Assembly (NCBI RefSeq): GCF_025486315.1
Contig: NZ_JAOOPY010000019.1
Location: 1-64,000 of the forward strand
From: Variovorax sp. N23
Lineage (GTDB): Bacteria > Pseudomonadota > Gammaproteobacteria > Burkholderiales > Burkholderiaceae_C
DNA length: 64,000 bases
Reading direction: 5' to 3'
Below the pieces are notes generated by a model. The model saw only the letters and a program-made list of their open reading frames with translations. It had not been told where the DNA came from and ran no database searches. Shown here in pieces: positions 9,062-47,643 of this stretch. Each line of letters begins with the position of its first letter. The stretch's first letter is position 1. Both the position numbers and the translations under genes were made by a program.

Positions 9062-9146
9062 GGCACCCGCGGAACTGGCTTTGCCAGGCCGCCGGGTGCG
9101 CCCCCTCGAGGGGGAGGCGGCGACACGCAGTGCGCCGCATCGGGGG
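9062..9146 (-). repeat. Covarying GC-rich intergenic repeat, copy 1
   Basis: This copy occupies the gap between the convergent gbpR and SDR genes. Read on the minus strand it has a CCCCC-TCGA-GGGGG hairpin (9101-9114). Next comes an outer stem GCACCC/GGGTGC (9063-9068 with 9094-9099) enclosing CTGGC-AAA-GCCAG (9075-9087). The second copy, at 47562-47643, keeps the same layout but with compensating base changes. Its position suits a bidirectional terminator, although no U-tract follows. Confidence 0.75.
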
Positions 9147-9153
9147 TGGGCCA

Positions 9154-9936
9154 TCACACCCAGCCGGCGTCGACGGTGAATTCCTGCGCGGTGCACATCG
9201 CTGCGTCGTCCGAGGCCAGGAACAGCACCATGCGGGCGATGTCCTCGGGCATCAGCTTGTCGGGCAGGCACTGGTTGCGCTTGAGCGCCTGCTCGCCTTC
9301 GTCGTCCAGCCACAGCTGGACCTGCCGCTCGGTCATCACCCACCCGGGCGACACGGTGTTGATGCGAATGCGGTCGCGCCCGAGGTCGACCGCCAGCCCG
9401 CGGGTCAGGCCGTTGACCGACGACTTGGCGATCGCGTAGCAGGGGTAGCCCGAGCCCTTGCCGCGCCAGCCGGTCGAGCCGAGGTTGACGACCGAGCCGA
9501 AGCCCAGGCGCTGCATGCCCGGCACCACCGACTGGATGGCGAAGAGCGCCGGCCGCTCGTTGATGGCCATGCGGTCGTCGTAATAGTCGGGCGTGACCGA
9601 GGCCAGCGAATGGCGGTCGTCGCTCGCCACGTTGTTGACCAGCACCGCGAAGTCGCCCAGGGCGGCGGCCGCCTCCGCGATGGCGCCCTGCAGCGACGCG
9701 ATGTCGCGCACGTCGCAGCGGCGCCACCATGGCGCCGGGTGGCCCGCTGCGGTGATCTGCGCGGCCAGCGTGCGGCTGGCTTCCTCGGCGATGTCGACGA
9801 AGGCCACGCGCGCGCCCTGCGCCGCGAAGGCCGACACCATCGCGGCACCGATGCCGCTGCCGCCGCCGGTGATGAAGACCGCGCGGTCGCGCAGGCTGGG
9901 GAAGACGGCGTTCTTCTGAAAGGCGGGTGCGCTCAT
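9154..9936 (-). CDS. SDR-family sugar 1-dehydrogenase (probable)
   Basis: A 260-residue classical short-chain dehydrogenase. The cofactor loop TGGGSGIG is at 23-30 and D48 suggests NAD preference. The NNVAS motif is at 101-105, and the catalytic set is S154, Y167 and K171 (YAIAK). Between gbpR and a lactonase gene it most likely oxidises galactose, arabinose or a related aldose to the 1,5- or 1,4-lactone, the first step of an oxidative (De Ley-Doudoroff or Weimberg-like) route. Substrate is inferred from neighbours only. It is divergent from the lactonase gene across a region bearing the ATATCGAT motif. Confidence 0.82.
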   Translation of the reverse strand: MSAPAFQKNAVFPSLRDRAVFITGGGSGIGAAMVSAFAAQGARVAFVDIAEEASRTLAAQITAAGHPAPWWRRCDVRDIASLQGAIAEAAAALGDFAVLVNNVASDDRHSLASVTPDYYDDRMAINERPALFAIQSVVPGMQRLGFGSVVNLGSTGWRGKGSGYPCYAIAKSSVNGLTRGLAVDLGRDRIRINTVSPGWVMTERQVQLWLDDEGEQALKRNQCLPDKLMPEDIARMVLFLASDDAAMCTAQEFTVDAGWV

Positions 9937-9967
9937 GGCTGTCTCCGAATCTGATGTATTGCAATTT

Positions 9968-10009
9968 GCATATCGATAGATATGCGTTTTTGTGTTTTCC
10001 TATATCAAT
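9968..10009. promoter_or_regulatory. Second putative GbpR-type operator
   Basis: Lies between the divergent SDR and SMP-30 genes. A perfect inverted repeat GCATATC-GATA-GATATGC occupies 9968-9985 and contains ATATCGAT at 9970. A 7-of-8 match, ATATCAAT, follows at 10002, again exactly 32 bp on. The region is AT-rich against a GC-rich background. It is probably the shared control site of both genes, tying them to the transport operon. Confidence 0.55.
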
Positions 10010-10074
10010 ATGCCCTGATACGATCCGCCGCGTCAAGGACCCGGAGCGGTCCGATTGCCGAACCGGAGACATCC

Positions 10075-10998
10075 ATGACCGTGCCTGCCCCCGTGCCCTC
10101 GACGCCGCGCCCCCTCGGCGAGCCCCGCTGCCTCTGGCCCGCCCAGGCCACCCTGGGCGAGGGCACGCTGTGGTCGCCCCGCGAGCGCGCGCTCTACTGG
10201 GTCGACATCCTCGAACGCACACTGCACCGCTGGCAGGCCGACGATGGCGCACGCCGCAGCTGGCATTTCGACGAGGAGATCTCCGCCGTGGCGGAACGCG
10301 CGAACGCGCCGGGCCTGCTGGTCACGCTGCGTCGCGGCTTCGCCTTCTTCGACCCGGTCCGGCCGGAACGCGTGCCGGCGTACCTGCACCAGCCCGAGCC
10401 GTCGCTGACCGGCAACCGCTTCAACGACGGCAAGTGCGACGCCCGGGGCCGCTTCTGGGGCGGCACCATGGACTTCGACTGCGAGGCGCCGACCGGCGCC
10501 CTCTATCGCTTCGACCCCGACGGCCGGTGCACCCGCCATGCGCAGGGCTTCGCGGTCACCAACGGGCCGACCTGGTCGGGCGACGGCCGCACGCTGTACT
10601 TCAACGACACTGTGCAGGGCCGCGTGCTGGCCTACGACTTCGACCCGGAGGCCGGCACGCTGGCCCACGAGCGCGAGTGGCTTCGCTTCGCGCCCGGCGA
10701 CGGCGTGCCCGACGGCATGACGACCGATGCGGCCGGCCGGCTCTGGATCGCGCACTGGGGCGGTGCCTGCGTGAGCTGCCACGACGCGGCGAGCGCGGCA
10801 GAGCTGTGCCGCATCGTGCTGCCGACCTCGCACATCACCAACTGCGCCTTCGGTGGCGACGATTTCTGCACCCTGTTCATCACCAGCGCCTGCAGCGGGC
10901 TCGGCGATGCGCAGCGCGTGGCCGAGCCGCTGGCCGGCGGCTTGTTCTCGGTGCGCATTGACAGCCCCGGTCTGCCGGCGCCACGGTTCGGCGGCTGA
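10075..10998 (+). CDS. SMP-30/gluconolactonase-family sugar lactonase
   Basis: A 307-residue six-bladed beta-propeller lactonase of the SMP-30/LRE family. The expected metal ligands are visible: Glu in LGEGTLW near residue 25, the Asn/Asp of NRFNDGKCD near 115, and Asp in VPDGMTTDAAGRLW near 215. It should open the aldonolactone made by the divergent SDR enzyme to give the aldonate. ATG at 10075 is preferred over an upstream in-frame ATG because that start would run through the operator. The gene converges with galM, 15 bases apart. Confidence 0.85.
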   Translation: MTVPAPVPSTPRPLGEPRCLWPAQATLGEGTLWSPRERALYWVDILERTLHRWQADDGARRSWHFDEEISAVAERANAPGLLVTLRRGFAFFDPVRPERVPAYLHQPEPSLTGNRFNDGKCDARGRFWGGTMDFDCEAPTGALYRFDPDGRCTRHAQGFAVTNGPTWSGDGRTLYFNDTVQGRVLAYDFDPEAGTLAHEREWLRFAPGDGVPDGMTTDAAGRLWIAHWGGACVSCHDAASAAELCRIVLPTSHITNCAFGGDDFCTLFITSACSGLGDAQRVAEPLAGGLFSVRIDSPGLPAPRFGG

Positions 10999-11013
10999 AG
11001 CGGCCGCAGCGCG

Positions 11014-12081
11014 TCAGCGCAGCAGGCCGAAGCGGTGCAGCGTGCGGCTCGCGAAGCGCTCGCCGGGGCGCAGCACCGTCGATGGGAATCCGGGCTGATT
11101 GGGCGAATCCGGAAAGTGCTGCGTCTCGAGGCACAGTCCGTCGCCCTGGCGCACCACCGCGCCGGCGCGGCCGACCAGCGTGCCGTCGAGGAAGTTGCCC
11201 GAATAGAACTGCACGCCGGGCTCGGTGGTGAACACCTCCATCACGCGCCCCGATTCGGCATGTTCGAGCCGTGCCGCCAGCGCCATGCCGTCGGTGGGCC
11301 GGTCGAGCACCCAGTTGTGGTCGTAGCCGCGCGCAAGCACCAGTTGCTCGTGCGGGCTGCGGATGCGCTCGCCGATGCGCGTCGGCGTGCGGAAGTCGAA
11401 GGGCGTGCCGGCCACCTCCGCCAGGCCGGTGGGAATGAGCGTGGCGTCGACCGGCGTGTAGCGGCTGGCCGGCAGCGTCAGCACATGGTCGAGCACCGAG
11501 CCGCTGCCCGCGAGGTTGAAGTAGTCGTGATGGCTCAGGTTCAGCACCGTGGGCCGGTCGGTCTCGGCGCTGTAGTCGATGCGCCAGCCCTGCTCGGCAT
11601 CGAGCGTGTAGCGCAGTTCCACCGCGAGGCGGCCGGGGTAGCCCTCTTCGCCGTCGGGGCTGACGCGGCGCAGCGCGATGGCGACTTCACTCGGCACGCC
11701 GGTGTCGACCGGCGCGATGTCCCACCAGCGCGCGCCGAAGCCGCGCAGGCCGCCGTGCAGTGCGTTCGGACCGTCGTTCACCGGCAACTGGAAGGTTTCG
11801 CCGTCGAGCGTGAAGCGGCCCGCGGCGATGCGGTTGGCATAGCGGCCGACGATGGTGCCGAAGTGCGGATTGCGCGCGACGTAGTCGGCGAGCGTGGGCA
11901 GGCCGAGCACGATGCTGCTGCACTGGCCGGCGCGGTCCGGCACCTCCAGCGCGGTCACGATGCCGCCGAAGTTGATGGCGCTCAGGCGCAGGCCGCGGCC
12001 GTTGTCCAGCGTGTACTGCGTGACCGTCCGGCCGTCGGGCAGCTGGCCGAATGGCGCTTCGGTGAGGGAAGGGGTCGACAT
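11014..12081 (-). CDS. galM: Aldose 1-epimerase
   Basis: A 355-residue galactose-mutarotase-fold enzyme. Family motifs are present: GRYANRIAAGRF near 75, NDGPNALHGG near 100, LNLSHHDYFNLAG near 175 with the catalytic His, and TTEPGVQFYSGNF near 305 with the catalytic Glu region. It interconverts alpha and beta anomers of galactose, glucose or arabinose. That fits a locus where a dehydrogenase accepts one anomer. It may be the last gene of an AraC-zinc finger-galM transcript, 17 bases after the preceding gene. No strong ribosome site precedes its ATG. Confidence 0.9.
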   Translation of the reverse strand: MSTPSLTEAPFGQLPDGRTVTQYTLDNGRGLRLSAINFGGIVTALEVPDRAGQCSSIVLGLPTLADYVARNPHFGTIVGRYANRIAAGRFTLDGETFQLPVNDGPNALHGGLRGFGARWWDIAPVDTGVPSEVAIALRRVSPDGEEGYPGRLAVELRYTLDAEQGWRIDYSAETDRPTVLNLSHHDYFNLAGSGSVLDHVLTLPASRYTPVDATLIPTGLAEVAGTPFDFRTPTRIGERIRSPHEQLVLARGYDHNWVLDRPTDGMALAARLEHAESGRVMEVFTTEPGVQFYSGNFLDGTLVGRAGAVVRQGDGLCLETQHFPDSPNQPGFPSTVLRPGERFASRTLHRFGLLR

Positions 12082-12098
12082 GCTGGCAGGGCGCGTGA

Positions 12099-12404
12099 TC
12101 AGTAGTAACGGGGGATCGGCCCCAGCTGCGGCGTGGTGTCGGGCAGCTCGACCATCACCTTGTCGGCATAGCACCAGCCCCAGCCTTCGGGCGGGTCGTA
12201 GCCTTCGATGATCGGGTGGCCGGTGTCCTTGTAGTGCGCCCGTGCATGGCGGTGGGGCGAATCGTCGCAGCAGCCGACGTGGCCGCAGCTGCGGCACAGG
12301 CGCAGGTGGACCCAGGTGCTGCCGGACTTCAGGCATTCCTCGCAGCCGCGCGCGCTGGGCGTGACGTGGCGGATGGTGTCGGTGTGCGTGCAGTGTTGGC
12401 TCAT
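12099..12404 (-). CDS. UBP-type zinc-finger protein
   Basis: A 101-residue protein that is almost wholly one UBP-type (ubiquitin-hydrolase-like) zinc finger. Ordered Cys/His ligands are seen: CTH at the N-terminus, CEEC near 22, CRSC near 38, a further CC, then H-rich HRHARAH and H63 in GHPI. Stand-alone copies occur in many bacteria that lack ubiquitin, and their function is not established. It sits tightly between an AraC regulator (14 bases) and galM (17 bases). Whether it shares their role is unknown. Confidence 0.8.
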   Translation of the reverse strand: MSQHCTHTDTIRHVTPSARGCEECLKSGSTWVHLRLCRSCGHVGCCDDSPHRHARAHYKDTGHPIIEGYDPPEGWGWCYADKVMVELPDTTPQLGPIPRYY

Positions 12405-12418
12405 GGCGCGATCTTCCC

Positions 12419-13327
12419 TCAGGTTTGCAACGCACGTCGCCACTGGCCGGGCGGCGCGCCTTCGGCCCGCGAGAACACGCGGGTGAAATGGCTCTGGTCG
12501 GCGAAGCCGCAGGCGGTGGCCACCTCGGCCAGGGGCAGGTCCGACGCGCGCAGCAGCTCGCGGGCGCGTGCTAGGCGCTGCGCCTGCAGCCAGTCGTGCG
12601 GCGTGTGGCCGGTGGCGAGGCGGAAGGCGCGCGTGAAGTGGCTGCGCGACAGCTGGCAGGCGTCGGCGACATCGGCGATGGCGATGCGGCCGTCGAGGTG
12701 GCTGCGCAGCATCTCCTTGGCGCGGGCTTCGTGCATCGGCGCCAGGGCCTGGGCGGGCCGCTCGGCGGCTGGCGTCGCGCCGCCGTAGCGGTCGTTCAGA
12801 TGAATGCCGATGGCCAGGCAGAGCTGGTCGACGAAGAGCGGGCTGACCTCGGCCGGCCGCGTGAGCACCGGCGTGAGCGCGCCCACCAGGTGCGCGAGCA
12901 CCCCGTCGTCGGCACCGGCCGTGGCCGTCAGCCCGTCGATCCGTGATCGGCCGCTGGCCTGCGCCAGCGCGGCGTGCGACATCTCCAGCAGCAGGAAGTC
13001 GAAGGGGCTCTGCATGTCGGCGCGGTAGTCGTCGCCGAAGTTGCGCACGTACACGGCGTTCTGGCCGAAGCCGCAGGCCTCGGCGCGGCGGCCGTGGAGG
13101 ATGCGCCGCCGGTGCCCGGCCGACTGCGAGACGCCGACCAGGAAGCCCCGTTCGCTGGCTGGTGTGGCGACGTGGCCGAGCCGCGCGTCGTCGGATCGCT
13201 TCCGATAGAAGCGGATGCCCGAGCCGGCGAATTCCAGGCTGTCGCTCAGCTGGGCCGACTGGCAGCCGAGCGTGTCGTGGGCCGTCGCGAGGGCATGCGG
13301 CCCGGAGGCTGAATTCATGGCGTTCAT
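12419..13327 (-). CDS. AraC-family transcriptional regulator
   Basis: A 302-residue regulator with a C-terminal double HTH (residues about 205-300: IADVADACQLSRSHFTRAF, then LAEVATACGFADQSHFTRVF). The N-terminal sensor region has no recognisable cupin signature. The start at 13327 has an AAGGA ribosome site nine bases upstream; a second ATG lies three codons in. It is divergent from the hydrolase/XapX/amidohydrolase operon and also precedes the zinc-finger and galM genes. Either set could be its target. Its HTH is similar to that of the AraC gene at 27371. Confidence 0.85.
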   Translation of the reverse strand: MNAMNSASGPHALATAHDTLGCQSAQLSDSLEFAGSGIRFYRKRSDDARLGHVATPASERGFLVGVSQSAGHRRRILHGRRAEACGFGQNAVYVRNFGDDYRADMQSPFDFLLLEMSHAALAQASGRSRIDGLTATAGADDGVLAHLVGALTPVLTRPAEVSPLFVDQLCLAIGIHLNDRYGGATPAAERPAQALAPMHEARAKEMLRSHLDGRIAIADVADACQLSRSHFTRAFRLATGHTPHDWLQAQRLARARELLRASDLPLAEVATACGFADQSHFTRVFSRAEGAPPGQWRRALQT

Positions 13328-13554
13328 CCGTGATGTCCTTGCAGGGGTAGGGCGATTGAAACACCGCCGGGTGACCGATCGCGCAAACGGAAAAAACGCC
13401 GCGCCTTTGTTCAAGCCAGCAGCGCCCGGCCCCCGTAGCCTTCGCACTGCTTTCCCGATGCCCCGCCTGCCGTGCGCTCCACGGCCCCGCGGGGTGTGCC
13501 GACTTATGGCACGACCCGATCCGCCTGTCATCACCCCTTTGGAAGAAACCCACC

Positions 13555-14208
13555 ATGTCCATCACCGCCACTCCCACGCCCGGCGCCAAGCTGCTCACCC
13601 CGAAGGATCACACGCTGGTCATGATCGACTTCCAGTCGCAGATGGCCTTCGCCACGCACTCGATCGACGCCGTCACGCTGCGCAACAACGCTGGACTGGT
13701 GGCCAGCGCGGCCGCCGGCTTCGGCGTGTCGACCATCCTCACGACCGTGGCCGAGAAGAGCTTCTCCGGCCCGATGTTCGACGAGATCAAGGCCGCCTTC
13801 CCCGGCCAGGCCATGCTCGACCGCACGTCGATGAACACCTGGGAAGACGCGGCCGTCATCAAGAAGATCAACGAGATCGGCAAGCCGCGCATCGTGCTGT
13901 CGGGCCTGTGGACCGGCGTGTGCATCGTCGGCCCGGCCCTCTCGGCCATCGACCAGGGCTTCGAGGTGTACGTGATCGCCGACGCCTGCGGCGATGTGTC
14001 GGCCGAAGCGCACGAGCGCGCCATGCAGCGCATGGTGCAGGCCGGCGCGCAGCCCATGACCTCGCTGCAGTACCTGCTCGAGCTGCAGCGCGACTGGGCC
14101 CGCACCGACACCTACGACATGACCACCGGCATCGCGCGCAAGCTCGGCGGCGCCTACGGCCTGGGCATCACCTACGCGAAAACGATGTTCAACGCGCACG
14201 AAGGTTGA
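13555..14208 (+). CDS. Isochorismatase-family cysteine hydrolase (YcaC-like)
   Basis: A 217-residue cysteine hydrolase of the isochorismatase fold. D25 (VMIDFQ) and C123 (SGLWTGVC) match the catalytic Asp and Cys, and R90 sits where the third residue (Lys in YcaC) is expected. YcaC relatives hydrolyse amides or esters, often with unknown natural substrates. It is the first gene of a plus-strand operon with XapX, amidohydrolase, DoxX, MFS and TehA genes. A GGAAGAAA ribosome site lies before the ATG. Two hydrolases in one operon suggest sequential attack on an imported or toxic compound, which is inference. Confidence 0.82.
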   Translation: MSITATPTPGAKLLTPKDHTLVMIDFQSQMAFATHSIDAVTLRNNAGLVASAAAGFGVSTILTTVAEKSFSGPMFDEIKAAFPGQAMLDRTSMNTWEDAAVIKKINEIGKPRIVLSGLWTGVCIVGPALSAIDQGFEVYVIADACGDVSAEAHERAMQRMVQAGAQPMTSLQYLLELQRDWARTDTYDMTTGIARKLGGAYGLGITYAKTMFNAHEG

Positions 14209-14220
14209 GCGGAGCGCGAG

Positions 14221-14523
14221 ATGAAGCCGTACATCGTTTCCCTCGCGCTGGGCGTGCTGGTCGGCGTCATCTACGCGCTCTTCAGCGTGCGCTCGCCGGC
14301 GCCGCCCATCATCGCGCTGGTCGGGCTGCTGGGCATCCTGGCCGGCGAACAGTTGCCGCCGCTGGTCAAGCGACTGTTCGACAGCAGCCCGAGCGCCAGC
14401 TCGTGGCTGGACCACCAGGTCAAGCCGCACATGTTCGGCGAGCTGCCGCAGTGCGCCAGGCCGTCCGACGTGGCCGCCACCGAAAGCACCGACGGCACCG
14501 CGACCCGCGGCCGCTCGTCCTGA
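14221..14523 (+). CDS. XapX-domain membrane protein
   Basis: A 100-residue protein. Residues 1-50 are two hydrophobic helices of the XapX (DUF1427) domain, with SLALGVLVGVIYALFSVRSPAPP and a second helix ending in GILAGEQLP. The remaining polar tail, after residue 60, is unlike typical XapX proteins. Such proteins often sit beside hydrolase or amidohydrolase genes, but their function is undescribed. It starts 12 bases after the hydrolase gene and ends 16 bases before the amidohydrolase gene, so it is an integral part of this operon. Confidence 0.72.
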   Translation: MKPYIVSLALGVLVGVIYALFSVRSPAPPIIALVGLLGILAGEQLPPLVKRLFDSSPSASSWLDHQVKPHMFGELPQCARPSDVAATESTDGTATRGRSS

Positions 14524-14539
14524 TTTCAAGGAACCCGAC

Positions 14540-16429
14540 ATGGTCGACGCCCAACCCCCCGAACTCATCCTGCACCACGGCCGCTTCACCACGCTGGACC
14601 GTGCCAACCCCACGGCGACCGCCGTCGCGATCCGCGGTGGGCGCTTCACGCATGTGGGGCGTGACGAAGACATCCTGCCGCTGGCGCGCGACAGCACGCG
14701 CGTGATCGACCTGCAGGGCCGCGCCGTGCTGCCCGGCCTGATCGACAACCATCTGCACATCATCCGCGGCGGGCTCAACTTCAACCTCGAGCTGCGCTGG
14801 GACGGCGTGCGCAGCCTGGCCGACGCCATGGCCATGCTCCAGCGGCAGGTCGCGATCACGCCGGCACCGCAATGGGTGCGCGTGGTGGGCGGCTTCACCG
14901 AGCACCAGTTCGCCGAGAAGCGCCTGCCGACCATCGCCGAGCTCAATGCCGTGGCGCCCGACACGCCGGTCTTCCTGCTGCACCTGTACGACCGCGCGCT
15001 GCTCAACGGCGCCGCGCTGCGCGCCGTCGGCTACACCCGAGACACGCCCGCACCGCCCGGTGGCGAGATCGTGCGCGACGCCGCTGGCAACCCCAGCGGC
15101 CTGCTGCTGGCCAAGCCCAATGCGAGCATCCTGTACGCCACGCTGGCCAAGGGCCCCAAGCTCCCCTTCGAGTACCAGATCAATTCCACGCGCCACTTCA
15201 TGCGCGAGCTCAACCGCCTGGGCGTGACCGGCGCCATCGACGCGGGCGGCGGCTTCCAGAACTTCCCCGAGGACTACCAGGTGATCCAGCAGCTGGCCGA
15301 TGCCGGCCAGCTCACCATCCGCCTGGCCTACAACCTGTTCACGCAGAAGCCCAAACAGGAGAAGCAGGACTTCCTGAACTGGACCGCCACGTCCAAGTAC
15401 AAGCAGGGCGACGACTACTTCCGCCACAACGGCGCCGGCGAGATGCTGGTGTTCTCCGCCGCCGACTTCGAGGACTTCCGCCAGCCCCGGCCCGACATGG
15501 CGCCCGAGATGGAAGACGACCTGGAAGAGGTCGTGCGCGTGCTGGTGCAGAACAAGTGGCCATGGCGCATGCACGCCACCTACGACGAGACCATCGATCG
15601 CGCGCTCGATGTCTTCGAGAAGGTGAATCGCGACACGCCGCTGGCGGGCCTGAACTGGTTCTTCGACCACTGCGAGACGATCTCCGAGAAGTCCATCGAC
15701 CGCATCGCGGCGCTGGGTGGCGGCATCGCGGTGCAGCACCGCATGGCCTACCAGGGCGAGTACTTCGTGGAGCGCTACGGCGCCGCGGCGGCCGAGGCCA
15801 CGCCGCCGGTCAAGCGCATGCTGGAGAAGGGCGTGAAGGTCTCGGCCGGCACCGACGCCACGCGCGTCGCGTCGTACAACCCGTGGGTGTCGCTGTCGTG
15901 GCTGGTCACCGGCCGGACGGTCGGCGGCATGCAGCTCTACCCGCAGCGCAACTGCCTCGACCGCGAAGCGGCCCTGCGCATGTGGACCGAGAACGTCACC
16001 TGGTTCTCCAACGAGGTCGGCAAGAAGGGCCGCATCGAGGCCGGCCAGCTGGCCGACCTGGTGGTGCCCGACCGCGACTTCTTCGCCTGCCCCGAGTCCG
16101 AGATCGCCGATACGACCGCGCTGCTGACCATGGTCGGCGGCAAGGTCGTCTATGCCGCCGGCCCGTTCCAGGCGCACGACGACGGCGCACCGCCGCCGGC
16201 CATGCCGGACTGGTCGCCGGTGCGCAGCTTCGGCGGCTACGCCGGTTGGGGCGACAAGGAAGGCAAGCCGATGCAGGCCGCGATGCGCCGCCTGGCGGCC
16301 GACTGCGCCTGCGCCAACGACTGCAATGTGCACGGGCACCGGCATGCGACGGCGTGGAGCAGCCAGTTGCCCATTGCCGACCTCAAGAGCTTCTGGGGCG
16401 CGCTCGGCTGCGCCTGCTGGGCTGTGTAA
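14540..16429 (+). CDS. YtcJ-type amidohydrolase
   Basis: A 629-residue metal-dependent amidohydrolase (Amidohydro_3). The N-terminal beta-sandwich strand is followed by VLPGLIDNHLH, whose H71 and H73 bind metal. Further ligands are expected in the WFFDHCE segment near 375 and the SAGTDATR segment near 440, and GRIEAGQLADLVV closes the domain. The C-terminus has an unusual Cys-rich stretch (DCACANDC and CACWAV). YtcJ relatives cleave amides or formyl groups; no substrate can be named. The stop is two bases from the DoxX start, consistent with one transcript. Confidence 0.85.
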   Translation: MVDAQPPELILHHGRFTTLDRANPTATAVAIRGGRFTHVGRDEDILPLARDSTRVIDLQGRAVLPGLIDNHLHIIRGGLNFNLELRWDGVRSLADAMAMLQRQVAITPAPQWVRVVGGFTEHQFAEKRLPTIAELNAVAPDTPVFLLHLYDRALLNGAALRAVGYTRDTPAPPGGEIVRDAAGNPSGLLLAKPNASILYATLAKGPKLPFEYQINSTRHFMRELNRLGVTGAIDAGGGFQNFPEDYQVIQQLADAGQLTIRLAYNLFTQKPKQEKQDFLNWTATSKYKQGDDYFRHNGAGEMLVFSAADFEDFRQPRPDMAPEMEDDLEEVVRVLVQNKWPWRMHATYDETIDRALDVFEKVNRDTPLAGLNWFFDHCETISEKSIDRIAALGGGIAVQHRMAYQGEYFVERYGAAAAEATPPVKRMLEKGVKVSAGTDATRVASYNPWVSLSWLVTGRTVGGMQLYPQRNCLDREAALRMWTENVTWFSNEVGKKGRIEAGQLADLVVPDRDFFACPESEIADTTALLTMVGGKVVYAAGPFQAHDDGAPPPAMPDWSPVRSFGGYAGWGDKEGKPMQAAMRRLAADCACANDCNVHGHRHATAWSSQLPIADLKSFWGALGCACWAV

Positions 16430-16431
16430 GG

Positions 16432-16839
16432 ATGGCCGCGATCCGCCGCCTCTTCACCACGCGCGCCGTGCACTGGCTCGCGCTGCTCTTCCTCTGCGCC
16501 GCCTACCTGCAGGGCGGCTTCAACAAGGCGACCGACTTCCCGTCGGCCATCGCCGAGATGAACCACTTCGGCATCGCGCCCGCCGGGCCGATGGCCGTGG
16601 CGGTCATCGTGTTCGAGTTCGGCGCCGCGCTGATGATCCTCACGGGCTTCTACCGCTGGCTGGGCGCACTGGGCCTCGCGGGCTTCACGCTGATGGCGAC
16701 CTTCGTGGCCAACCGCTTCTGGGAGATGGCGATGCCCGAGCGCTTCATGGTCGCCAATGCCTTCTTCGAGCACTGGGGCCTGGTCGGCGGCTTCCTGCTG
16801 GTGGCCTGGCATGACCTGAAGGGGCGTGATGAGCACTGA
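16432..16839 (+). CDS. DoxX-family membrane protein
   Basis: A 135-residue protein with four predicted membrane helices and the DoxX signature GGFNKATD near residue 25. DoxX proteins have been linked to quinone-dependent redox reactions and oxidative-stress defence, but most remain uncharacterised. The gene begins two bases after the amidohydrolase stop and overlaps the next gene by 11 bases. It should therefore be co-translated with the exporter. Confidence 0.78.
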   Translation: MAAIRRLFTTRAVHWLALLFLCAAYLQGGFNKATDFPSAIAEMNHFGIAPAGPMAVAVIVFEFGAALMILTGFYRWLGALGLAGFTLMATFVANRFWEMAMPERFMVANAFFEHWGLVGGFLLVAWHDLKGRDEH

Positions 16840-18522: not shown

Positions 18523-18527
18523 ATCCA

Positions 18528-38090: not shown

Positions 38091-38095
38091 CCGAG

Positions 38096-38548: not shown

Positions 38549-38549
38549 G

Positions 38550-40117: not shown

Positions 40118-40143
40118 GGCCGGCGCGCCGGCCTTGGCGCACG

Positions 40144-40752: not shown

Positions 40753-41737
40753 GGACACCGGGGCGGACCTGCGCGCCCCTGCCGCCGAGGCGCTGATCGA
40801 GCGCTACCTCGAGCACGCGCGCGTCGAGCGCCGACTGGCCGAGCGCACCCTCGACATCTACGCCGAGCACTTGCGGGCACTGGCCGTGAAGATGGCCGAA
40901 GCGCAGTTGCCGGTCGACCGCGTCGCCGCCGCGCACGTGCGCCGCTGGATGGCGCAGATGCACAGCGCCGGGCGCGAGCCGCGCGGCATCGCGCTGGTGC
41001 TGTCGTGCTGGCGCAGCTTCTTCCGCTGGCTCGGGCAGCAGCGGCTGGTGCCCTTCAACCCGGTGCAGGACGTGCGCGCGCCGAAGGCGGCGCGTCCGCT
41101 GCCCAAGGCGTTGGCGGTCGACGACGCGGTGCAGCTGGCCGAGCTGCACGACCCCGACGCAGATCCGTGGACCGAGGCACGCGACCGCGCCATCGTCGAG
41201 CTGCTGTACGGCTGCGGCCTGCGCGTGAGCGAGCTGGTCGGGCTCGACGTGCATGCCAGCCAGGACGCGCGCGGCTGGGTCGACCTCGACGCCGGCGAGG
41301 CGCAGGTGCTGGGCAAGGGCAGCAAGCGGCGCAGCGTGCCGGTCGGCGGCAAGGCGGCGCAAGCCCTGCACGCCTGGCTGGCGGTGCGCGACCGGTGCGC
41401 GGCGTTGCCGGCCGCCCTGCTGCGCGACCCGGCCGCCGCGGCGGCGCTCTTCATCGGCCGCAACGGCACGCGCTTCTCGGCGCAGTCGGTCTGGCAGCGG
41501 GTCAAGGCGCGCAGCCTGAAGGCCGGGCTGCCGGCGGCGGTGCACCCGCACATGCTGCGCCATTCCTTCGCCAGCCATGTGCTGCAGTCGAGCAGCGACC
41601 TGCGCGCGGTGCAGGAGCTGCTCGGCCACGCCAACATCACGACCACGCAGGTCTACACACGGCTGGATTTCCAGCACCTGGCCAAGGCCTACGATGCCGC
41701 GCATCCACGGGCGAAGGCCAAAGACGACAACAAATGA
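40739..41737 (+). CDS. xerC: Site-specific tyrosine recombinase XerC
   Basis: A 332-residue recombinase. The N-terminal SAM-like core-binding domain covers about 15-105, with RTLDIYAEHLR. The catalytic domain has R162 (GCGLRVSEL), H271 and R274 (HMLRHSFASH), H297 (LLGHANI) and the nucleophile Y306 (TQVYTR). With XerD it resolves chromosome dimers at dif. Position after dapF-DUF484 supports XerC rather than a phage integrase. No dif-like site was noticed. ATG 40730 is an alternative start three codons earlier. Confidence 0.92.
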   Translation: MATSEDTGADLRAPAAEALIERYLEHARVERRLAERTLDIYAEHLRALAVKMAEAQLPVDRVAAAHVRRWMAQMHSAGREPRGIALVLSCWRSFFRWLGQQRLVPFNPVQDVRAPKAARPLPKALAVDDAVQLAELHDPDADPWTEARDRAIVELLYGCGLRVSELVGLDVHASQDARGWVDLDAGEAQVLGKGSKRRSVPVGGKAAQALHAWLAVRDRCAALPAALLRDPAAAAALFIGRNGTRFSAQSVWQRVKARSLKAGLPAAVHPHMLRHSFASHVLQSSSDLRAVQELLGHANITTTQVYTRLDFQHLAKAYDAAHPRAKAKDDNK

Positions 41738-42936
41738 AAACACTCCGCCTCAAGTCCGGCAAGGAAAAGTCGCTGCTGCGCCGCCACCCATGGATTTTCG
41801 AATCCGCCATTGCACGCGGTGGCGCCGATCCCGGCGAAACGGTGCGCGTGGAGTCGCACGACGGCCAATTCCTCGCGTGGGCGGCGTTCAGCCCGAGTTC
41901 GCAGATCCGCGCACGCGCCTGGAGCTTCGTCGAGACACAGCGCATCGACGCGGCGTTCCTGGCATCGCTGTGCGTCCGCGCCGTCGGCGCCCGCAGTTAT
42001 TTCGATCTGCAAAGCGACGGCATCCGTCTCGTGCACGGCGAGGCCGACGGGCTGCCGGGCCTGATCGTCGATCGCTACGGCGACACCTTGGTCGCGCAGT
42101 TCGGCTCGGCCGGCGTCGAACGCTGGAAGGACGTGCTGGCCGATGCGCTGCTGGCGGCGACGGGGCTCGCCAAACTCTATGAGCGCTCCGATGCGAGCGG
42201 CCGCGAGCGCGAAGGGCTGAAGCCCGTCACCGGCTGGCTGCGCGGGGAGGGCGCCACCGAGCAGGTGATCCGCGAGCACGACTGGCGGCTGTCGCTCGAC
42301 ATCGCGACCGGCCACAAGACCGGCTTCTACCTCGACCAGCGCGACAGCCGGCAGCGTTTCGCCGAGATCGCGAAGCACCGGCGCTTTCGCCGCGTGCTCA
42401 ACTGCTTCTGCTACACGGGCGGCTTCACCGTCGCGGCGCTGGCCGGGCTGAAGGCGGCGGGCGCGGTCGAGGGCGCCGAGCTGACCTCGATCGACTCGTC
42501 GCTGCCGGCGCTCGAGCGCGCCCGCGCCAACCTGGCGCTCAACGGCTTCGAGGGCGCGAACGCGCAGTTCCTCGATGCCGACGTGAATGCTTCGCTGCGC
42601 CGCTTCATCGAGGAGGGCCGCCGCTTCGACGCCATCGTGCTCGACCCGCCCAAGTTCGCGCCCACGGTGGCCCATGCCGACCGCGCCGCGCGGGCCTACA
42701 AGGACATCAACCGGCTGGCGCTCAAGCTGCTCGAGCCCGGCGGCGTGCTGCTGACCTTCTCGTGCTCGGGCGGCATCAGCGCCGACCTGTTCCACAAGAT
42801 CGTGGCCTCGGCCGGCCTGGACGCGGGGGTGGACGGGTACATCAGCGAACGCCTGGGTGCCGCGCCCGACCACCCGATGACCATCGAGTTTCCCGAAGGG
42901 GAGTACTTGAAAGGCCTCGTGGTGGTGCGCAAGTAG
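41734..42936 (+). CDS. rlmI: 23S rRNA m5C methyltransferase, RlmI type
   Basis: A 400-residue SAM-dependent methyltransferase. A PUA-like N-terminus (KSGKEKSLLRRHPWIFESAI) is followed by an EEHEE-like domain with LPGLIVDRYGD. The Rossmann part has FCYTGGFTVAAL, LDPPKFA and the Cys of TFSCSGG. RlmI methylates C1962 of 23S rRNA in E. coli. The length equals the family norm (396). It is ATGA-coupled to xerC. Confidence 0.88.
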   Translation: MKTLRLKSGKEKSLLRRHPWIFESAIARGGADPGETVRVESHDGQFLAWAAFSPSSQIRARAWSFVETQRIDAAFLASLCVRAVGARSYFDLQSDGIRLVHGEADGLPGLIVDRYGDTLVAQFGSAGVERWKDVLADALLAATGLAKLYERSDASGREREGLKPVTGWLRGEGATEQVIREHDWRLSLDIATGHKTGFYLDQRDSRQRFAEIAKHRRFRRVLNCFCYTGGFTVAALAGLKAAGAVEGAELTSIDSSLPALERARANLALNGFEGANAQFLDADVNASLRRFIEEGRRFDAIVLDPPKFAPTVAHADRAARAYKDINRLALKLLEPGGVLLTFSCSGGISADLFHKIVASAGLDAGVDGYISERLGAAPDHPMTIEFPEGEYLKGLVVVRK

Positions 42937-43010
42937 CCTTTGACCCTGCCGCAGCGCCCGCCGGGCCGCGTCGCTAAACTTTCCGCCTTTCCCGTTCTCG
43001 GAGTCCCGCT

Positions 43011-44060
43011 ATGGCCCTCATTCCCGCCACCATCCTCACCGGCTTCCTCGGCTCGGGCAAGACCACGTTGCTCAAGCGCATCCTCTCCGAGGCGCACGGC
43101 CAGAAGATCGCCGTGATCGAGAACGAGTTCGGCGAAGAGAACATCGACAGCGACATCCTGGTGACCGAGTCGAAGGAGCAGATCGTGCAGATGAGCAACG
43201 GCTGCGTCTGCTGCACCATCCGCGAAGACCTGCGCGAGGCGCTGCAGCTGCTGGCCGCCAAGAAGCGCCAGGGCCTGCTCGACTTCGACCGCGTGGTGAT
43301 CGAAACCACCGGCCTGGCCGACCCGGGTCCGGTGGCGCAGACCTTCTTTATGGACGACGAGATCGCCGAGAGCTACCTGCTCGACTCGATCCTGACGCTG
43401 GTCGACGCCAAGCACGCGCCGCAGCAGCTCAACGACCGCCAGGAGGCGCGCCGCCAGGTCGGCTTCGCCGACCAGATATTCATCAGCAAGAGCGAACTCG
43501 TCTCCGAGGCGGAAACCGAGGCGCTGATCCATCGCCTGAAGCACATGAACCCGCGCGCGCCCCAGCAGAAGGCGCATTTCGGCGACGTGCCGCTCAAGGA
43601 CATCTTCGATCTGCGCGGCTTCAACCTGAACGCCAAGCTCGACATCGACCCGGACTTCCTGAAGGAAGAGACCGAACCGCACGACCACGACCACGCGCAT
43701 GGCGAGCATTGCGACCACCCGTCGCATGCGCACGAAGGCCATGGCCACCATCACCACACGGACGACGATGTCAAGAGCTTCGTCTACAAGGCCGACCGCG
43801 CCTTCGACCCGGCCAGGCTGGAAGACTTCCTGGGCGCCATCGTCAACATCTACGGCCCGAAGATGCTGCGCTACAAGGGCGTGCTGAACATGAAGGGCAC
43901 CGACCGCAAGGTGATCTTCCAGGGCGTGCACCAGCTGATGGGCAGCGACCTGGGTCCGGAATGGGGCGCCGACGAAGTCCGCCAGAGCCGGATGGTGTTC
44001 ATCGGCATCGAGCTGCCGCGCGAGATTCTCGAGCAAGGCCTCGAGCAGTGCCTGGTCTGA
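43011..44060 (+). CDS. CobW/ZNG1-family metallochaperone GTPase
   Basis: A 349-residue G3E GTPase. The P-loop is GFLGSGKTTL (11-20). The metal motif CVCC is at C65, C67 and C68. The switch region is ETTGLADPGP, and SKSE is the guanine-specificity motif. A His-rich loop near 224-248 (HDHDHAHGEH, then HEGHGHHHH) lies before the C-terminal CobW_C domain. The family delivers zinc or other metals to enzymes. GGAG precedes the ATG. Which metal and client are served is unknown; no Zur site was identified upstream. Confidence 0.87.
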   Translation: MALIPATILTGFLGSGKTTLLKRILSEAHGQKIAVIENEFGEENIDSDILVTESKEQIVQMSNGCVCCTIREDLREALQLLAAKKRQGLLDFDRVVIETTGLADPGPVAQTFFMDDEIAESYLLDSILTLVDAKHAPQQLNDRQEARRQVGFADQIFISKSELVSEAETEALIHRLKHMNPRAPQQKAHFGDVPLKDIFDLRGFNLNAKLDIDPDFLKEETEPHDHDHAHGEHCDHPSHAHEGHGHHHHTDDDVKSFVYKADRAFDPARLEDFLGAIVNIYGPKMLRYKGVLNMKGTDRKVIFQGVHQLMGSDLGPEWGADEVRQSRMVFIGIELPREILEQGLEQCLV

Positions 44061-44086
44061 CCGCCGGCTTCATATCTATATACAAT
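44057..44086 (+). promoter_or_regulatory. Probable dksA promoter with GC-rich discriminator
   Basis: CTGACC (44057-44062) and TACAAT (44081-44086) are 18 bases apart and are followed at once by a CG-only run (CGCGCGCC, with one AT pair absent). GC-rich discriminators are the hallmark of promoters inhibited by DksA and ppGpp. The transcript would carry a leader of about 175 bases with short inverted repeats (for example GGTCT and AGACC at 44113-44127). Confidence 0.5.
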
Positions 44087-44267
44087 CGCGCGCCTGTTCC
44101 GCAGCCGCCCCGGGTCTTCAGAAGACCAGGGTGTGACTTCCGGCATAGGAGGGCGTGCGTTCCTGGCGTGCTTTCAAGGGTATAACCCCGAGGGCTCGCC
44201 ACCGGTGGGCACCTGACAGTGTGGGTCGTGAGGTCGAAGAACCGCACGGCTTTCAGGGGGATAGCCA

Positions 44268-45266
44268 GTGAAAGCGCATTCGAGTTCGTCGAAGGAGCCA
44301 GCCACCGTGAAGAAACCTGCCGCGAAGGCCCAACCTGTCTTGAAGCCGGTCGTCCCGAAGACGCCGGCGGCCAAGTCGGCAGCGTCGTCGGCGAAAAAGG
44401 CTTCCGCCCCGTCGGCTCCCGCCAAGAAAGTCAGCGCGGCCCCGGCAAAGACCGTCCGCGCCGTGAAAGCCGCTCCGCCCGCCCCGGCCCGCAAGGCTGT
44501 GGCGAAAAGCACATCGAAGGCAGCCTCCGTGGCTGCCGCGTCGTCCAAACCCACCGGCCGCAGTGCCGAACCACCTGCTCCTTCGCTCCCCATGAAAAAA
44601 ACGGCTGCCGCCTCCACTTCCGCCCCGGCGACAACTCCCGTCACCTCGATCCCCGCCGCGCCCGCTCCGGCCACGCGCGGTGGCCGGGTGTCGCGCCTGT
44701 CGCAATTGACCGTGCCCTCGATGGCGCAGTCGGTCGCCTCGACGGCGGCCAAGTCCAGCTTCACGCAGAGCGCCTCGCCCGCACTGGTGCCGCCGCCTCC
44801 GATGGCGGTCAAGAAAGACCCGAAGCTCGCCAACAACTGGAAGACCAAGTCCGTCGAGGAGCTGAGCGACGCCGAAGTCATCGCCATGCCCGACAGCGAG
44901 TACATGAACGAGAAGCAGATGGCCTTCTTCCGCTTGAAGCTGATCGAGCTCAAGCGCGGCATCCTCGAGAACGCCGGCGAGACCACCGAGCATCTGCGCG
45001 AAGACACCGTGGTGGTGCCTGACCCGGCCGACCGCGCCACCATCGAGGAAGAGCACGCGCTGGAACTGCGCACGCGCGACCGCGAACGCAAACTGCTCAA
45101 GAAGATCGAGCAGTCGATCCAGCGCATCGACGCCGGCGACTACGGCTACTGCGACGAGACCGGCGAGCCCATCGGCGTCGGCCGCCTGCTGGCCCGCCCG
45201 ACCGCCACGCTGTCGCTCGAGGCGCAGCAACGCCGGGAACTCAAGCAGAAGATGTTCGGAGACTAG
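44268..45266 (+). CDS. dksA: RNA polymerase-binding transcription factor DksA, extended form
   Basis: A 332-residue DksA with a core of about 150 residues. The core has the coiled-coil tip DPADRAT, the ELRTRDRERKLLKKIE helix, and YGYCDETGEPIG near 292. Only the first zinc-finger Cys remains (C295); the other three positions are T298, S316 and A319. This resembles zinc-independent DksA proteins. Residues 1-180 are a Lys/Ala/Pro/Ser-rich low-complexity extension. DksA helps ppGpp reset transcription in starvation. Start is GTG, preceded by CAGGGGGAT. Confidence 0.9.
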   Translation: MKAHSSSSKEPATVKKPAAKAQPVLKPVVPKTPAAKSAASSAKKASAPSAPAKKVSAAPAKTVRAVKAAPPAPARKAVAKSTSKAASVAAASSKPTGRSAEPPAPSLPMKKTAAASTSAPATTPVTSIPAAPAPATRGGRVSRLSQLTVPSMAQSVASTAAKSSFTQSASPALVPPPPMAVKKDPKLANNWKTKSVEELSDAEVIAMPDSEYMNEKQMAFFRLKLIELKRGILENAGETTEHLREDTVVVPDPADRATIEEEHALELRTRDRERKLLKKIEQSIQRIDAGDYGYCDETGEPIGVGRLLARPTATLSLEAQQRRELKQKMFGD

Positions 45267-45324
45267 GCGCCTTTTCTTCCTCGACATGACCTCTCCATCG
45301 ATGCCCTGAGTTCCGTACCTCCGC

Positions 45325-46941
45325 ATGTCCAAGGAAGAACAGTCCGGTCGCCTGCTCTCGAAAGTGGCAAAGTTCGTGCGCAATCCGCTGAAGGATTGGG
45401 CCGAACTGGATGCGCAGGATTCGGCCGCGACCGAGAACGGCTACAGCCGCGAGATGCTCAAGGAGATGATCGAGCGGCGCCAGCGCAACGATTTCGTGCG
45501 CCGCCGGGAGTTCGACATGCTGCGCAAGCTGCGCCAGCGCGAGGCGGCCGGCGCGCGCGACCCGGGGCAACCGTCCTCGTTGAACCTCAGCAGCACCTCG
45601 GGCAAGACCGAGGGGCGCGCCCTCACGCTCAAGAAGATCGACGAGATCGAGGCGCAGATGTCCAAGCAGTGGTGGAAGGGCGCACCCGCCACCACCACGA
45701 CCACCACCACCGACGACGAACCGTCGATCAACCCCGAACTCCTGGCGGCCCAGCGCGCCCGGGCTTACGCCGACACGGCGCCGCAGGCCGCCGACAGCAC
45801 CGTGCCGGCGATCGCCGAAGCGCCGGCCGGCGCCGCCGGGGCGACCAGTGCAGCCGTGCCGCTGCTGGTGTACGACAGTGCGCTCGACGAAGCCGCGATC
45901 CGCTTCGCGCATGGCGACGATGCCGGCGCCGAGTCGATCCTGCTGCAGAGCCTGCTGTCCGACGCGACCCAGAACGACCACAACGACATCTGGCTGGCGC
46001 TGCTCGATCTGTACCGCGCCGTCGGTGACGCCGAGAAATTCGCGGCGGCCAGTACCCGCTATGCGCAGCGCATGAGGCGCAATGGCCCCGAGTGGGTGTC
46101 GTTGCGCGCCCTGGCGCGCGGGGTGCAGACCAGCGTCGCGGCCACGGGCCAGCATTCGGCCGACTGGCGCAGCCCGGCGCAGCTCAACCGGGAGGGCCTG
46201 GTCGAGCTCACGCGTGCGCTGGGCGGCGCGGGTTCGGTGTGGACGCTCGATTGGCGCCTGCTCGGCGGCATCGATCTTGCCGCGGCCGGGCCGCTGAAGT
46301 CGCTGTTCGCGCACTGGTCGGCATCGCCGGTCGACGTGCGCTTCGTCGGCGCCGGGCGCCTGCTGGCCGTGCTCGAGAAGGCCACGCCTGCCAACGAGCG
46401 CAACACCGACGAGGCCTGGTGGCAGTTGCGCATGGCTGCGCTGCGGCTCATGAACGAGGTCGACCTCTTCGAGCTGGTCGCGCTCAACTACTGCATCACC
46501 TACGAAGTCTCGCCGCCGCCCTGGGAAGAGCCGGTGGGCCGCTATGTCGCCGTGGAGTCGACGGGGACGAGCCGGCCGGCTGGCTTGTCCATGGCCATGA
46601 GCATCGACAGCCAGGCACAGGCGTCGTCGACCGGTTCACCGGAGATCCTGGGCGCGACGCTGGCCGGTGATCTGAGCGGTGAGTCGGCGTCGACCTGGCG
46701 CCGTCTCGATGCCGAGATCGCCGACGCCGAGATCGCCGACCCGACGGCGCCGGCGACCATTCACTGCACGGCGCTCGTGCGCCTGGACCTCGCCGCGGCC
46801 GGCACGCTGCTGCACTGGGTGACCGAGCGCGACGCCAATGGCCAGCGCGTGCAGTTCGTCGATGCGCACCGCCTGATCGCCGCCTTCTTCAAGGTGGTGG
46901 GCATCGCGGACCACGCGCTGGTGCGGGTGCGCGAAAACTAG
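45325..46941 (+). CDS. STAS-domain/helical-repeat protein of unknown function
   Basis: A 538-residue protein. Residues 1-130 are charged and helical, ending in a TTTTTTT run. Residues 185-255 look like a helical repeat with [25 protein letters not shown], a FimV/TPR-like pattern. STAS-like strands follow near 280-400 ([23 protein letters not shown]) and again near 485-535 ([17 protein letters not shown]). Homologues occupy this place beside dksA and hslV in other Burkholderiales, to my knowledge. The role is unknown; STAS domains suggest protein-protein signalling. A 58-bp gap separates it from dksA. Confidence 0.75.
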
Positions 46942-47005
46942 CCGTGACGCCGTGCGGGGCCTGGCGGTCCCTTGCATTGGTCCGGGCCATCCCCAGATGG
47001 CTTCG

Positions 47006-47551
47006 ATGGAACAGTTTCACGGAACCACGATCATCAGCGTGCGCCGCAAGACTCCCGGAGGCGACCAGGTCGCCATCGGCGGGGACGGGCAGGTCACACT
47101 CGGCAACATCGTCATCAAGGGCTCGGCGCGCAAGGTGCGCCGTCTGCACCACGGCAAGGTGCTCGCCGGCTTCGCCGGCGCCACGGCCGATGCCTTCACC
47201 CTCTTCGAGCGCTTCGAGGCCAAGCTCGAGAAGCACCAGGGGCATCTGACCCGCGCGGCGGTCGAGCTCACCAAGGACTGGCGCACCGACCGCGTGCTGC
47301 GCCGCCTGGAGGCGATGCTCGCGGTGGCCGATGCCACCACCTCGCTGATCATCACCGGCAACGGCGACGTGCTCGAGCCCGAAGACGGCGTCGTCGCCAT
47401 CGGTTCCGGCGGCGCCTACGCGCAGGCCGCCGCCAAGGCCCTGCTCGACCACAGCGACCTCACGGCCGAGCAGATCGTGAAGCGATCGCTGGAGATCGCC
47501 GGCGAAATCTGCATCTACACGAACATGAACCACACCGTGGAGACGCTCTGA
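47006..47551 (+). CDS. hslV: ATP-dependent protease subunit HslV
   Basis: A 181-residue peptidase of the proteasome-like fold. The N-terminal nucleophile Thr is exposed after removal of MEQFHG, leaving [25 protein letters not shown] and [17 protein letters not shown] are standard. It forms a double hexamer capped by HslU. ATG 47006 is chosen because family members begin MEQF; an ATG three codons earlier is possible. A 151-bp gap with a structured repeat separates it from hslU, where many genomes have only a short spacer. Confidence 0.93.
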
Positions 47552-47561
47552 AAATGAAATA

Positions 47562-47643
47562 CCACCCCCGAAGCGCCTGCGGCGCCTCCCCCTCGAGGGG
47601 GCGATACCACCGGCCCGGCAAAGCCGGTTCCGCGGTATCCCTG
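47562..47643 (+). repeat. Covarying GC-rich intergenic repeat, copy 2
   Basis: Lies between hslV and hslU. CCCCC-TCGA-GGGGG is at 47588-47601. The outer stem GATACC (47603-47608) pairs with GGTATC (47634-47639) and encloses CCGGC-AAA-GCCGG (47615-47627). Relative to copy 1 at 9062-9146 (inverted), the stems differ by paired substitutions that keep complementarity, while the loop AAA and joints are unchanged. Confidence 0.78.

What the first reader, a model, noticed from the sequence alone, without database searches (positions are those of the whole stretch)
9062..47643. Intergenic element with compensating base changes in two stems
Copies at 9062-9146 (minus) and 47562-47643 (plus) share a CCCCC-TCGA-GGGGG hairpin and a nested stem-loop. 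Outer stems differ (GCACCC/GGGTGC against GATACC/GGTATC) and inner stems differ (CTGGC/GCCAG against CCGGC/GCCGG), but pairing and the AAA loop are preserved. Four covarying pairs in two copies point to selection on structure. One copy fills a convergent gap; the other splits hslV from hslU. REP-like mobile element, terminator or RNA processing site are all possible.
Basis: seen in the sequence. Interest (0 to 1): 0.7.

Follow-up and report, generated by a model that had tools for sequence, protein, structure and literature searches.

The report
Hairpin repeat hugging stop codons
The two hairpins are copies of a short repeated DNA element that is spread through many related bacteria and usually sits just behind a gene's stop codon, in the same direction as the gene; it looks like a little-studied repeat family first reported in 2011.

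Summary
The two sites are copies of a 79-99 nt, three-hairpin repeat with 64 strong copies in the window's genome. It is in all 25 genus genomes sampled, 175 of 250 family genomes and three genomes of two other families. In 75 distinct copies from relatives, 18 of 29 stem pairs show double changes and 97% of cells pair.

New here: a same-strand frame of at least 150 codons ends within -3 to 15 nt of the element in 113 of 138 copies, against about 2% of random positions and 10 of 138 in a mirrored control. Both window sites are empty in close relatives, but behind another gene 13 of 22 genomes carry a copy.

Helix 2-3 cells are 99% Watson-Crick with no G-T excess over A-C (9 against 7). That fits DNA-level pairing or recent copying better than RNA selection. 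RAYT-REP and terminator readings fail.

It is very probably the Beta-proteobacterial repeat element (BRE) of Hot et al. 2011 (PMC3110155), judged by hosts, size, G+C and tandem layout; sequences could not be compared.

The parts
9058..9148 (-). Copy 1, core element, 91 nt (long form of hairpin 1)
   Evidence: model R1, 108 bits, E 2.4e-18
9117..9138 (-). Copy 1, hairpin 1 (GCGGCGCAC-TGC-GTG-T-CGCCGC)
   Evidence: sequence; pairs counted
9101..9114 (-). Copy 1, hairpin 2 (CCCCC-TCGA-GGGGG)
   Evidence: exact palindrome
9063..9099 (-). Copy 1, hairpin 3 with outer stem GCACCC/GGGTGC, inner stem CTGGC/GCCAG, loop AAA and a few unpaired bases
9030..9153 (.). Stretch between two convergent stop codons that holds copy 1; in relatives G004, G010, G019 the two stops touch (TGA-TCA)
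   Evidence: 15 orthologous loci give no model hit, one of them (L217) holds a piece in the other direction
9154..9936 (-). Upstream gene of copy 1 (short-chain-dehydrogenase-like, name by recall); its TGA ends 5 nt before the element
47563..47644 (+). Copy 2, core element, 82 nt (short form of hairpin 1)
   Evidence: model R1, 91.2 bits, E 6.4e-15
47573..47585 (+). Copy 2, hairpin 1 (GCGCC-TGC-GGCGC)
47588..47601 (+). Copy 2, hairpin 2 (CCCCC-TCGA-GGGGG)
47603..47639 (+). Copy 2, hairpin 3 with outer stem GATACC/GGTATC, inner stem CCGGC/GCCGG, loop AAA
47552..47702 (+). Whole stretch between the hslV stop and the hslU start (151 nt; 2 nt in four Variovorax); from 47645 on it resembles the 3' tail of the long subtype, ending GGGAGAACTGGC
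46952..47551 (+). hslV frame (true start probably later); TGA ends 11 nt before the element
47703..49031 (+). hslU
   Evidence: translation [13 protein letters not shown]...; start matched in relatives

Best explanation
Both sites are copies of a dispersed, non-coding repeat of the BRE kind: a 79-99 nt core of three hairpins, in one subtype carried on a unit of about 150 nt. I think it is a mobile or once-mobile DNA element without its own enzyme that moves or is copied through a folded single strand, so the arms must stay complementary in the copies that multiply (inferred). New copies are found, or survive, mostly within about 15 nt behind a stop codon and pointing with the gene (shown). There they are presumably transcribed as 3'-UTR or intercistronic hairpins. 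By analogy with E. coli REPs they would slow termination or shield the mRNA 3' side (inferred, untested). What moves it is unknown; it is probably not the RAYT-like gene found in these genomes.
For: 64 copies in 5.29 Mb. In 25 of 25 genus genomes, 15 to at least 105 copies each (scoring limit 105), and 175 of 250 family genomes. Sites filled here and empty in relatives: hslV-hslU gap 2 nt in four Variovorax, 5 and 17 nt in two more, 151 nt here (none of the six has a hit); stops touching at the other site in three genomes, 0 of 15 loci with a hit. One 82-nt copy is letter-identical in the own genome (L026), another genus member and two genomes of genus g83; copy 2 matches it at 80 of 82. Direct tandem copies 1-4 nt apart. 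Stems: 18 of 29 pairs doubly changed. Helix 2-3 cells: 2743 Watson-Crick, 9 G-T, 7 A-C, 13 other. Sense-strand stop within -3..15 nt: 113 of 138 copies; mirrored antisense test at the 3' edge 10 of 138; random positions 1.9-2.7%. Of 7 plasmid copies, 4 lie in annotated stretches; all 4 follow a same-strand CDS, 3 within 2-7 nt and one 36 nt behind.
Against: No excision or transposition was seen and no enzyme was found. Some places are shared: behind one gene 13 of 22 genus genomes carry a copy (12 full, one cut by the locus end), own genome not among them; behind the next gene 4 of 22 do. At the 13-genome site the 12 full copies are 81% alike on average while the 45 nt behind them are 36% alike (shuffled 31%), which could mean selection after insertion; but unrelated subtype-B-like copies of the own genome are 78% alike and 79% like this site, so reuse of the place or a shared consensus fits as well. 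The lack of a wobble excess rests on 16 cells. The model favours paired copies. The random-position null is mostly coding DNA, so part of the stop-codon excess is simply being between genes; the mirrored control answers this only in part, as the long subtype's 3' edge lies further out.
Confidence: 0.68

Rival explanations
1. The element is first of all a functional RNA: a 3'-UTR module that stabilises or down-regulates the upstream message, kept by selection at each gene, with spread a side issue.
For: Position and direction behind stop codons of all three kinds; structure kept in two families; 13 of 22 genus genomes carry it behind the same gene despite TGA/TAA/TAG change, with the element far more alike than the DNA behind it; a separate terminator follows in some copies, e.g. 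L078, L079, L081 by eye; a BRE-bearing region of B. pertussis gives an 80-nt transcript (PMC3110155).
Against: No excess of G-T over A-C on the sense strand: 9 against 7 overall, 1 against 1 at the shared site; window copies absent in close relatives; at the shared site copies are hardly more alike than unrelated copies; a copy identical across two genera.
Confidence: 0.24
2. A true REP moved by the genome's REP-associated tyrosine transposase (RAYT).
For: Palindromic, high copy number, 3' of genes; a RAYT-like gene is in the genome (NF047646, E 5.2e-20 but below its cut-off).
Against: 23 RAYT loci have no element in about 3.3 kb; one such gene in 23 of 25 genus genomes whatever the element count, none in two incomplete ones, of which G017 has 60 copies; element-rich G050, G059, G096 have no match; no conserved GTAG head; tandem copies are direct.
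Confidence: 0.05
3. Intrinsic transcription terminator.
For: GC-rich hairpins at gene ends.
Against: 2 of 141 copies have T4 or more right behind hairpin 3; a T5 run follows within 70 nt in 6 of 64, 4 of 29 and 2 of 48 copies; some copies lie inside operons, e.g. hslV-hslU and a TRAP transporter operon.
Confidence: 0.02
4. An attC-like recombination site of gene cassettes (also behind the stop codon, also a folded strand).
For: Position behind the stop codon, fixed direction, Watson-Crick stems with unpaired bases.
Against: No core-site consensus seen by eye (consensus recalled, not searched); copies are scattered over the genome, not in cassette arrays.
Confidence: 0.01

Closest known systems
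BRE, Beta-proteobacterial repeat element (Hot et al. 2011, BMC Genomics 12:207, PMC3110155; outline and passages seen, not figures or supplements)
   Same: About 90 bp (75-91), G+C-rich (63.7-78.9%), dispersed and in direct tandem with few nt between copies, usually intergenic, in Bordetella and Comamonadaceae (Polaromonas 29, Delftia 13, Acidovorax, Rhodoferax); mobility suspected.
   Different: That paper counts at most 29 copies per genome; in the passages seen it says nothing on position behind stop codons ('stop codon' 0 occurrences), on double changes in stems or on a longer unit; some of its copies lie inside ORFs. Sequences were not compared here.
REP / REPIN with RAYT (Nunvar et al. 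2010, PMC2817692, passages and section 6; GTAG- and CGTC-tagged repeats, PMC3733652, passages)
   Same: Palindromic, many copies, extragenic, mostly downstream of genes; GTAG repeats often supply the TAG stop of the flanking ORF.
   Different: No GTAG/CGTC tag, no inverted pairs seen, no flanked RAYT; 79-99 nt with three different hairpins rather than 20-40 nt.
E. coli REPs within 15 nt of a stop codon (Liang, Rudd, Deutscher 2015, recalled, not read; summarised in PMC12306157, abstract and passages)
   Same: Hairpin shortly behind a stop codon, reported to stall ribosomes; 260 of 496 E. coli REPs in an earlier count, 446 of 4072 in that paper.
   Different: Here 113 of 138, in fixed direction; no sequence relation shown.
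Bacterial MITEs (ERIC, NEMIS, RUP, BOX; names)
   Same: Small, non-coding, dispersed.
   Different: No clear terminal inverted repeats or target duplication for most copies; only the long subtype has ATGAAACC/GGTTTCAT and TGA at both ends.

Membership tests
BRE (Beta-proteobacterial repeat element) | Sequence similarity to the Bordetella BRE list (List S1 of PMC3110155) | not testable with these tools
BRE (Beta-proteobacterial repeat element) | About 75-91 bp, G+C 64-79% | tested here: met
   Met by most: 44 of 64 own copies are 79-91 nt, the other 20 are 92-99 nt; G+C 0.68-0.82 (recounted from its table).
BRE (Beta-proteobacterial repeat element) | Hosts: Alcaligenaceae (Bordetella) and Comamonadaceae | tested here: met
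   The window's nearest named hslV relatives are Variovorax and Variovorax plasmids hold copies; G406 and G369, whose nearest named hslVU among those compared is Bordetella petrii (86%, 82%), hold 15 and at least 21 copies.
BRE (Beta-proteobacterial repeat element) | Direct tandem copies with 0 to a few nt between | tested here: met
   G001, G134, G369.
REP (GTAG/CGTC type) | Conserved GTAG or CGTC at the foot of the hairpin | tested here: not met
   By eye on the alignments: GTAG occurs inside an arm of hairpin 1 in some copies only.
REP (GTAG/CGTC type) | RAYT gene flanked by the repeat in inverted orientation | tested here: not met
   0 element hits in 23 RAYT loci.
REP (GTAG/CGTC type) | Inverted doublets (REPIN/BIME) | tested here: not met
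   In the own genome the only separate neighbours within 300 bp are two direct pairs, on C3 and C16, each with one weak partial hit.
MITE | Terminal inverted repeats | tested here: inconclusive
   GGTTTCAT (1 mismatch or less) in 15 of 64 own, 3 of 29 and 5 of 48 other copies; null 29 of 6125.
MITE | Target-site duplication | tested here: inconclusive
   Right end ..A[AC]CTGA in 12 of 64 own, 1 of 29 and 4 of 48 other copies, null 83 of 6125; not clean at the two sites with empty relatives.
Intrinsic terminator | U-run directly behind the hairpin | tested here: not met
   2 of 141 copies.
Rfam RNA families | Match to a described family | tested here: not met
   0 at gathering score in the window; one sub-threshold hit at each copy, E 3.2 and 1.6.

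The most novel reading that the evidence does not exclude
A mobile element whose insertion is aimed at the end of translation: it enters directly behind stop codons of any kind, in the direction of the gene, and can do so again at the same gene in different species, so that nearly every copy becomes a 3'-UTR hairpin cassette. That would be a targeting mode not tied to a fixed target sequence, working with a folded-strand mechanism that does not use RAYT.
Probability: 0.2. Interest if true: 0.78.

Novelty: new member of a known kind. Interest (0 to 1): 0.5.

Why it matters
A barely studied repeat turns out to be common in a large bacterial group (109 of 133 sampled genera of the family) and to be placed with unusual precision relative to stop codons. 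That makes a testable question of whether small repeats aim at, or are only tolerated at, the ends of genes, and whether they set how much of the upstream protein is made. It also supplies a covariance model for a feature that annotation passes over: in the four plasmid matches that lie in annotated stretches no feature is listed under the match.

Tried and rejected
RAYT link: rejected. Rfam: no family. Phage carriage: no match in phage records, no exact pattern match in viral contigs. Exact palindrome text in papers: two papers, unrelated by their titles. Folding energy: weak.

Codon log-odds gene calling: the score mixed sense and antisense frames, so only reading-frame ends were taken from it, and the test was redone with controls and with a codon-position filter (48 of 64, 22 of 28, 30 of 46). 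Hairpin-3 pattern with two mismatches: not discriminating, as the reversed control gave 39+49 matches against 45+37; only its 50 exact matches, all inside model hits on comparing the lists by eye, mean anything.

A pure TGA target: disfavoured, not excluded. Stops beside 55 own copies are TGA 37, TAA 11, TAG 7; a filtered baseline is TGA 145, TAG 25, TAA 16 of 186.

Rows dropped: 6 of 70 hits (two partial tandem pieces, one reverse self-hit, three with E above 0.1); 3 of 77 relative copies (too near a locus end); the last 8 of 78 rows of A4 (weak hits) and identical rows in A4 and A5; 2 of 14 rows of A6 (they lie at the neighbouring site). Relatives' loci were taken from the best-scoring listed hits, not at random; 40 loci, one per genome, were fetched from other genera.

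They corrected the count at the L066 site from 5 to 4 of 22 (L298 shows only a short start-like stretch) and brought out the site shared by 13 of 22 genomes. For that reason I lowered the best explanation from 0.72 to 0.68, raised the RNA rival from 0.20 to 0.24 and lowered the three other rivals by 0.01 each.
Full report
What is there. The window holds two copies of one element, at 9058-9148 on the minus strand and 47563-47644 on the plus strand. Each has three hairpins: hairpin 1 in a long or a short form, the CCCCC-TCGA-GGGGG hairpin 2, and a bulged hairpin 3 with an outer and an inner stem. The genus is not named by the tools; the nearest named hslV relatives are Variovorax (89-91% identity for the first four).

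It is a family. An exact search for the palindrome gave 8 places in the 5.29 Mb genome. A covariance model R1 built from those eight (alignment A3; model) found 70 hits at E up to 1, of which 64 are used here. In a sample of relatives 25 of 25 genus genomes (own included) have it, with 15 to at least 105 copies each (105 was the scoring limit), and 0 of 16 genomes of other families. In a sample of the family it is in 175 of 250 genomes and 109 of 133 genera, with at most 17 candidates scored per genome. In a sample of the order it is in 7 of 200, three of them outside the family. Two of those three, G406 and G369, have Bordetella petrii as nearest hslVU relative among 14 named loci compared (86% and 82%).

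Subtypes (by eye). Subtype A starts CACCCCCGA and mostly ends CCCTGG; its long form goes on through a small fourth hairpin and GGTTTCAT to a right end ..AACTGA, often just before the next ATG. Subtype B starts GCTCGCCCCCAGG and often ends CCACGAA. The long-form tail is seen by motif in 12 of 64 own, 1 of 29 genus and 4 of 48 other copies, null 83 of 6125. A rough text rule splits the own copies into 47 A and 17 B, with a stop close by in 41 and 14.

Structure. In 75 distinct copies from relatives, 97.2% of 2064 cells form a standard pair, 18 of 29 pairs have changes on both sides, and slid controls give 39-48% pairing. Cells count sequences, not events. In hairpins 2 and 3 over own and relative copies, 2743 of 2772 cells are Watson-Crick, 9 G-T, 7 A-C and 13 other. 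RNA selection on the sense strand should tolerate G-U more than A-C; no such excess is seen. I read this as structure needed in the copies that multiply (DNA level), with single copies drifting afterwards. Hairpin-templated repair of one arm by the other would also give strict complementarity. The numbers are small.

Position. In 55 of 64 own copies, 23 of 28 genus copies and 35 of 46 copies from elsewhere (40 loci of other genera plus three hslVU-region loci), a same-strand frame of at least 150 codons ends between -3 and 15 nt of the element. Random positions give 1.9-2.7%. The mirrored test (antisense frame ending at the element's 3' edge) gives 7 of 64, 0 of 28 and 3 of 46. With a codon-position filter for real genes it is 48 of 64, 22 of 28 and 30 of 46. 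Of 7 plasmid copies fetched, 3 lie in records with almost no annotation; the other 4 follow a same-strand CDS, with gaps of 7, 4, 36 and 2 nt. In Bordetella-like genomes 5 of 8 inspected copies lie 2-8 nt behind a stop of a frame of at least 100 codons; of the other three, L306 and L308 follow a piece that looks like the end of another copy.

Gain, loss and sharing. At hslV-hslU four Variovorax have CTGA-CC-ATG where the window has 151 nt; two further Variovorax have 5 and 17 nt; Pseudacidovorax has an element in the same gap. Of 80 hslV-region loci 3 hold a hit, one of them in this gap. At the other window site 0 of 15 orthologous loci have a hit, and in three genomes the two stops touch. Other places are shared: behind one gene 13 of 22 genus genomes carry a copy (12 full, one cut by the locus end), with TGA, TAA or TAG as stop, and 9 do not, the own genome among them. 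Behind the following gene 4 of 22 have it, own included. The 12 full copies at the shared site are 81% alike, the 45 nt behind them 36% (shuffled 31%), the upstream gene end 86%. Nineteen subtype-B-like own copies are 78% alike among themselves and 79% like this site. So the shared site shows either retention with homogenisation or constraint, or repeated arrival at the same stop; the data do not decide. An 82-nt copy is letter-identical in two genera.

What moves it. The genome has one PF01797 gene, RAYT-like but below the NCBIfam cut-off. 23 of 25 genus genomes have exactly one match, none of the 23 loci has an element near, and element-rich genomes without a match exist. RAYT is therefore not the likely partner. 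No other candidate was looked for by a protein search.

Known or new. Searches for the sequence and for REP-like repeats in these bacteria (open-licence PubMed Central only) brought one fitting paper: Hot et al. 2011, PMC3110155, which names a Beta-proteobacterial repeat element. Size, G+C, hosts and direct tandem layout fit. The sequences could not be compared. The passages seen do not mention stop codons, double changes in stems or a longer unit. Stop-proximal REPs are known from E. coli (260 of 496 within 15 nt in an earlier count, 446 of 4072 in a later one; PMC12306157). GTAG REPs are mostly downstream of genes and often supply a TAG stop (PMC3733652). The kind of thing is therefore known; the precision, fixed direction, breadth and structure are what this work adds.

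Verdict. A real, widespread, probably mobile hairpin repeat, very likely BRE, placed mostly behind stop codons in sense direction. Its mechanism of spread and its effect on expression are inferred, not shown.

Noticed in passing
L010:3134-3823 (G000:C42): Single-copy RAYT-like gene, matched once in 23 of 25 genus genomes, followed in the own genome by a small palindrome CAACACG-GCGAA-CGTGTTG (about L010:3834-3852) but by no copy of the element; looks like a kept, domesticated transposase gene.
   Followed up: partly
L213, L218, L219, behind the dehydrogenase stop codon: At the site of window copy 1, other genus members carry a different long inverted repeat (..ACGCGAAGG.. / ..CTTCGCG..) in the same gap; another repeat family may use the same place.
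   Followed up: no
L222, L223, same gap: Other G/C-run repeats (e.g. CCCTCCCCCAATTGGGGGAGGG in L222) lie in this gap in two genus members.
   Followed up: no
L217, same gap: A piece that looks like the element without hairpin 3 lies there in the opposite direction, behind the stop of the convergent gene.
   Followed up: no
L084, L087, L089: Three same-genus genomes (G005, G007, G014) carry the element before the same gene (ATGAGCCGTATTGGCGACTGG..), another possibly shared place.
   Followed up: no
site about position 700-870 of the oriented loci L281-L301: A place behind one gene where 13 of 22 genus genomes carry a copy, all 12 full ones subtype-B-like except L290; a good test bed for inheritance against repeated insertion.
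   Followed up: partly
element columns 3-7, 35-39, 44-48 of A3: Both subtypes keep two C-runs but only one G-run, so the 5' C-run could compete with hairpin 2 for the same partner (a possible switch).
   Followed up: no
G054 (family sample): 16 PF01797 matches, several with the same score and length: probably IS200-type elements in several copies.
   Followed up: no
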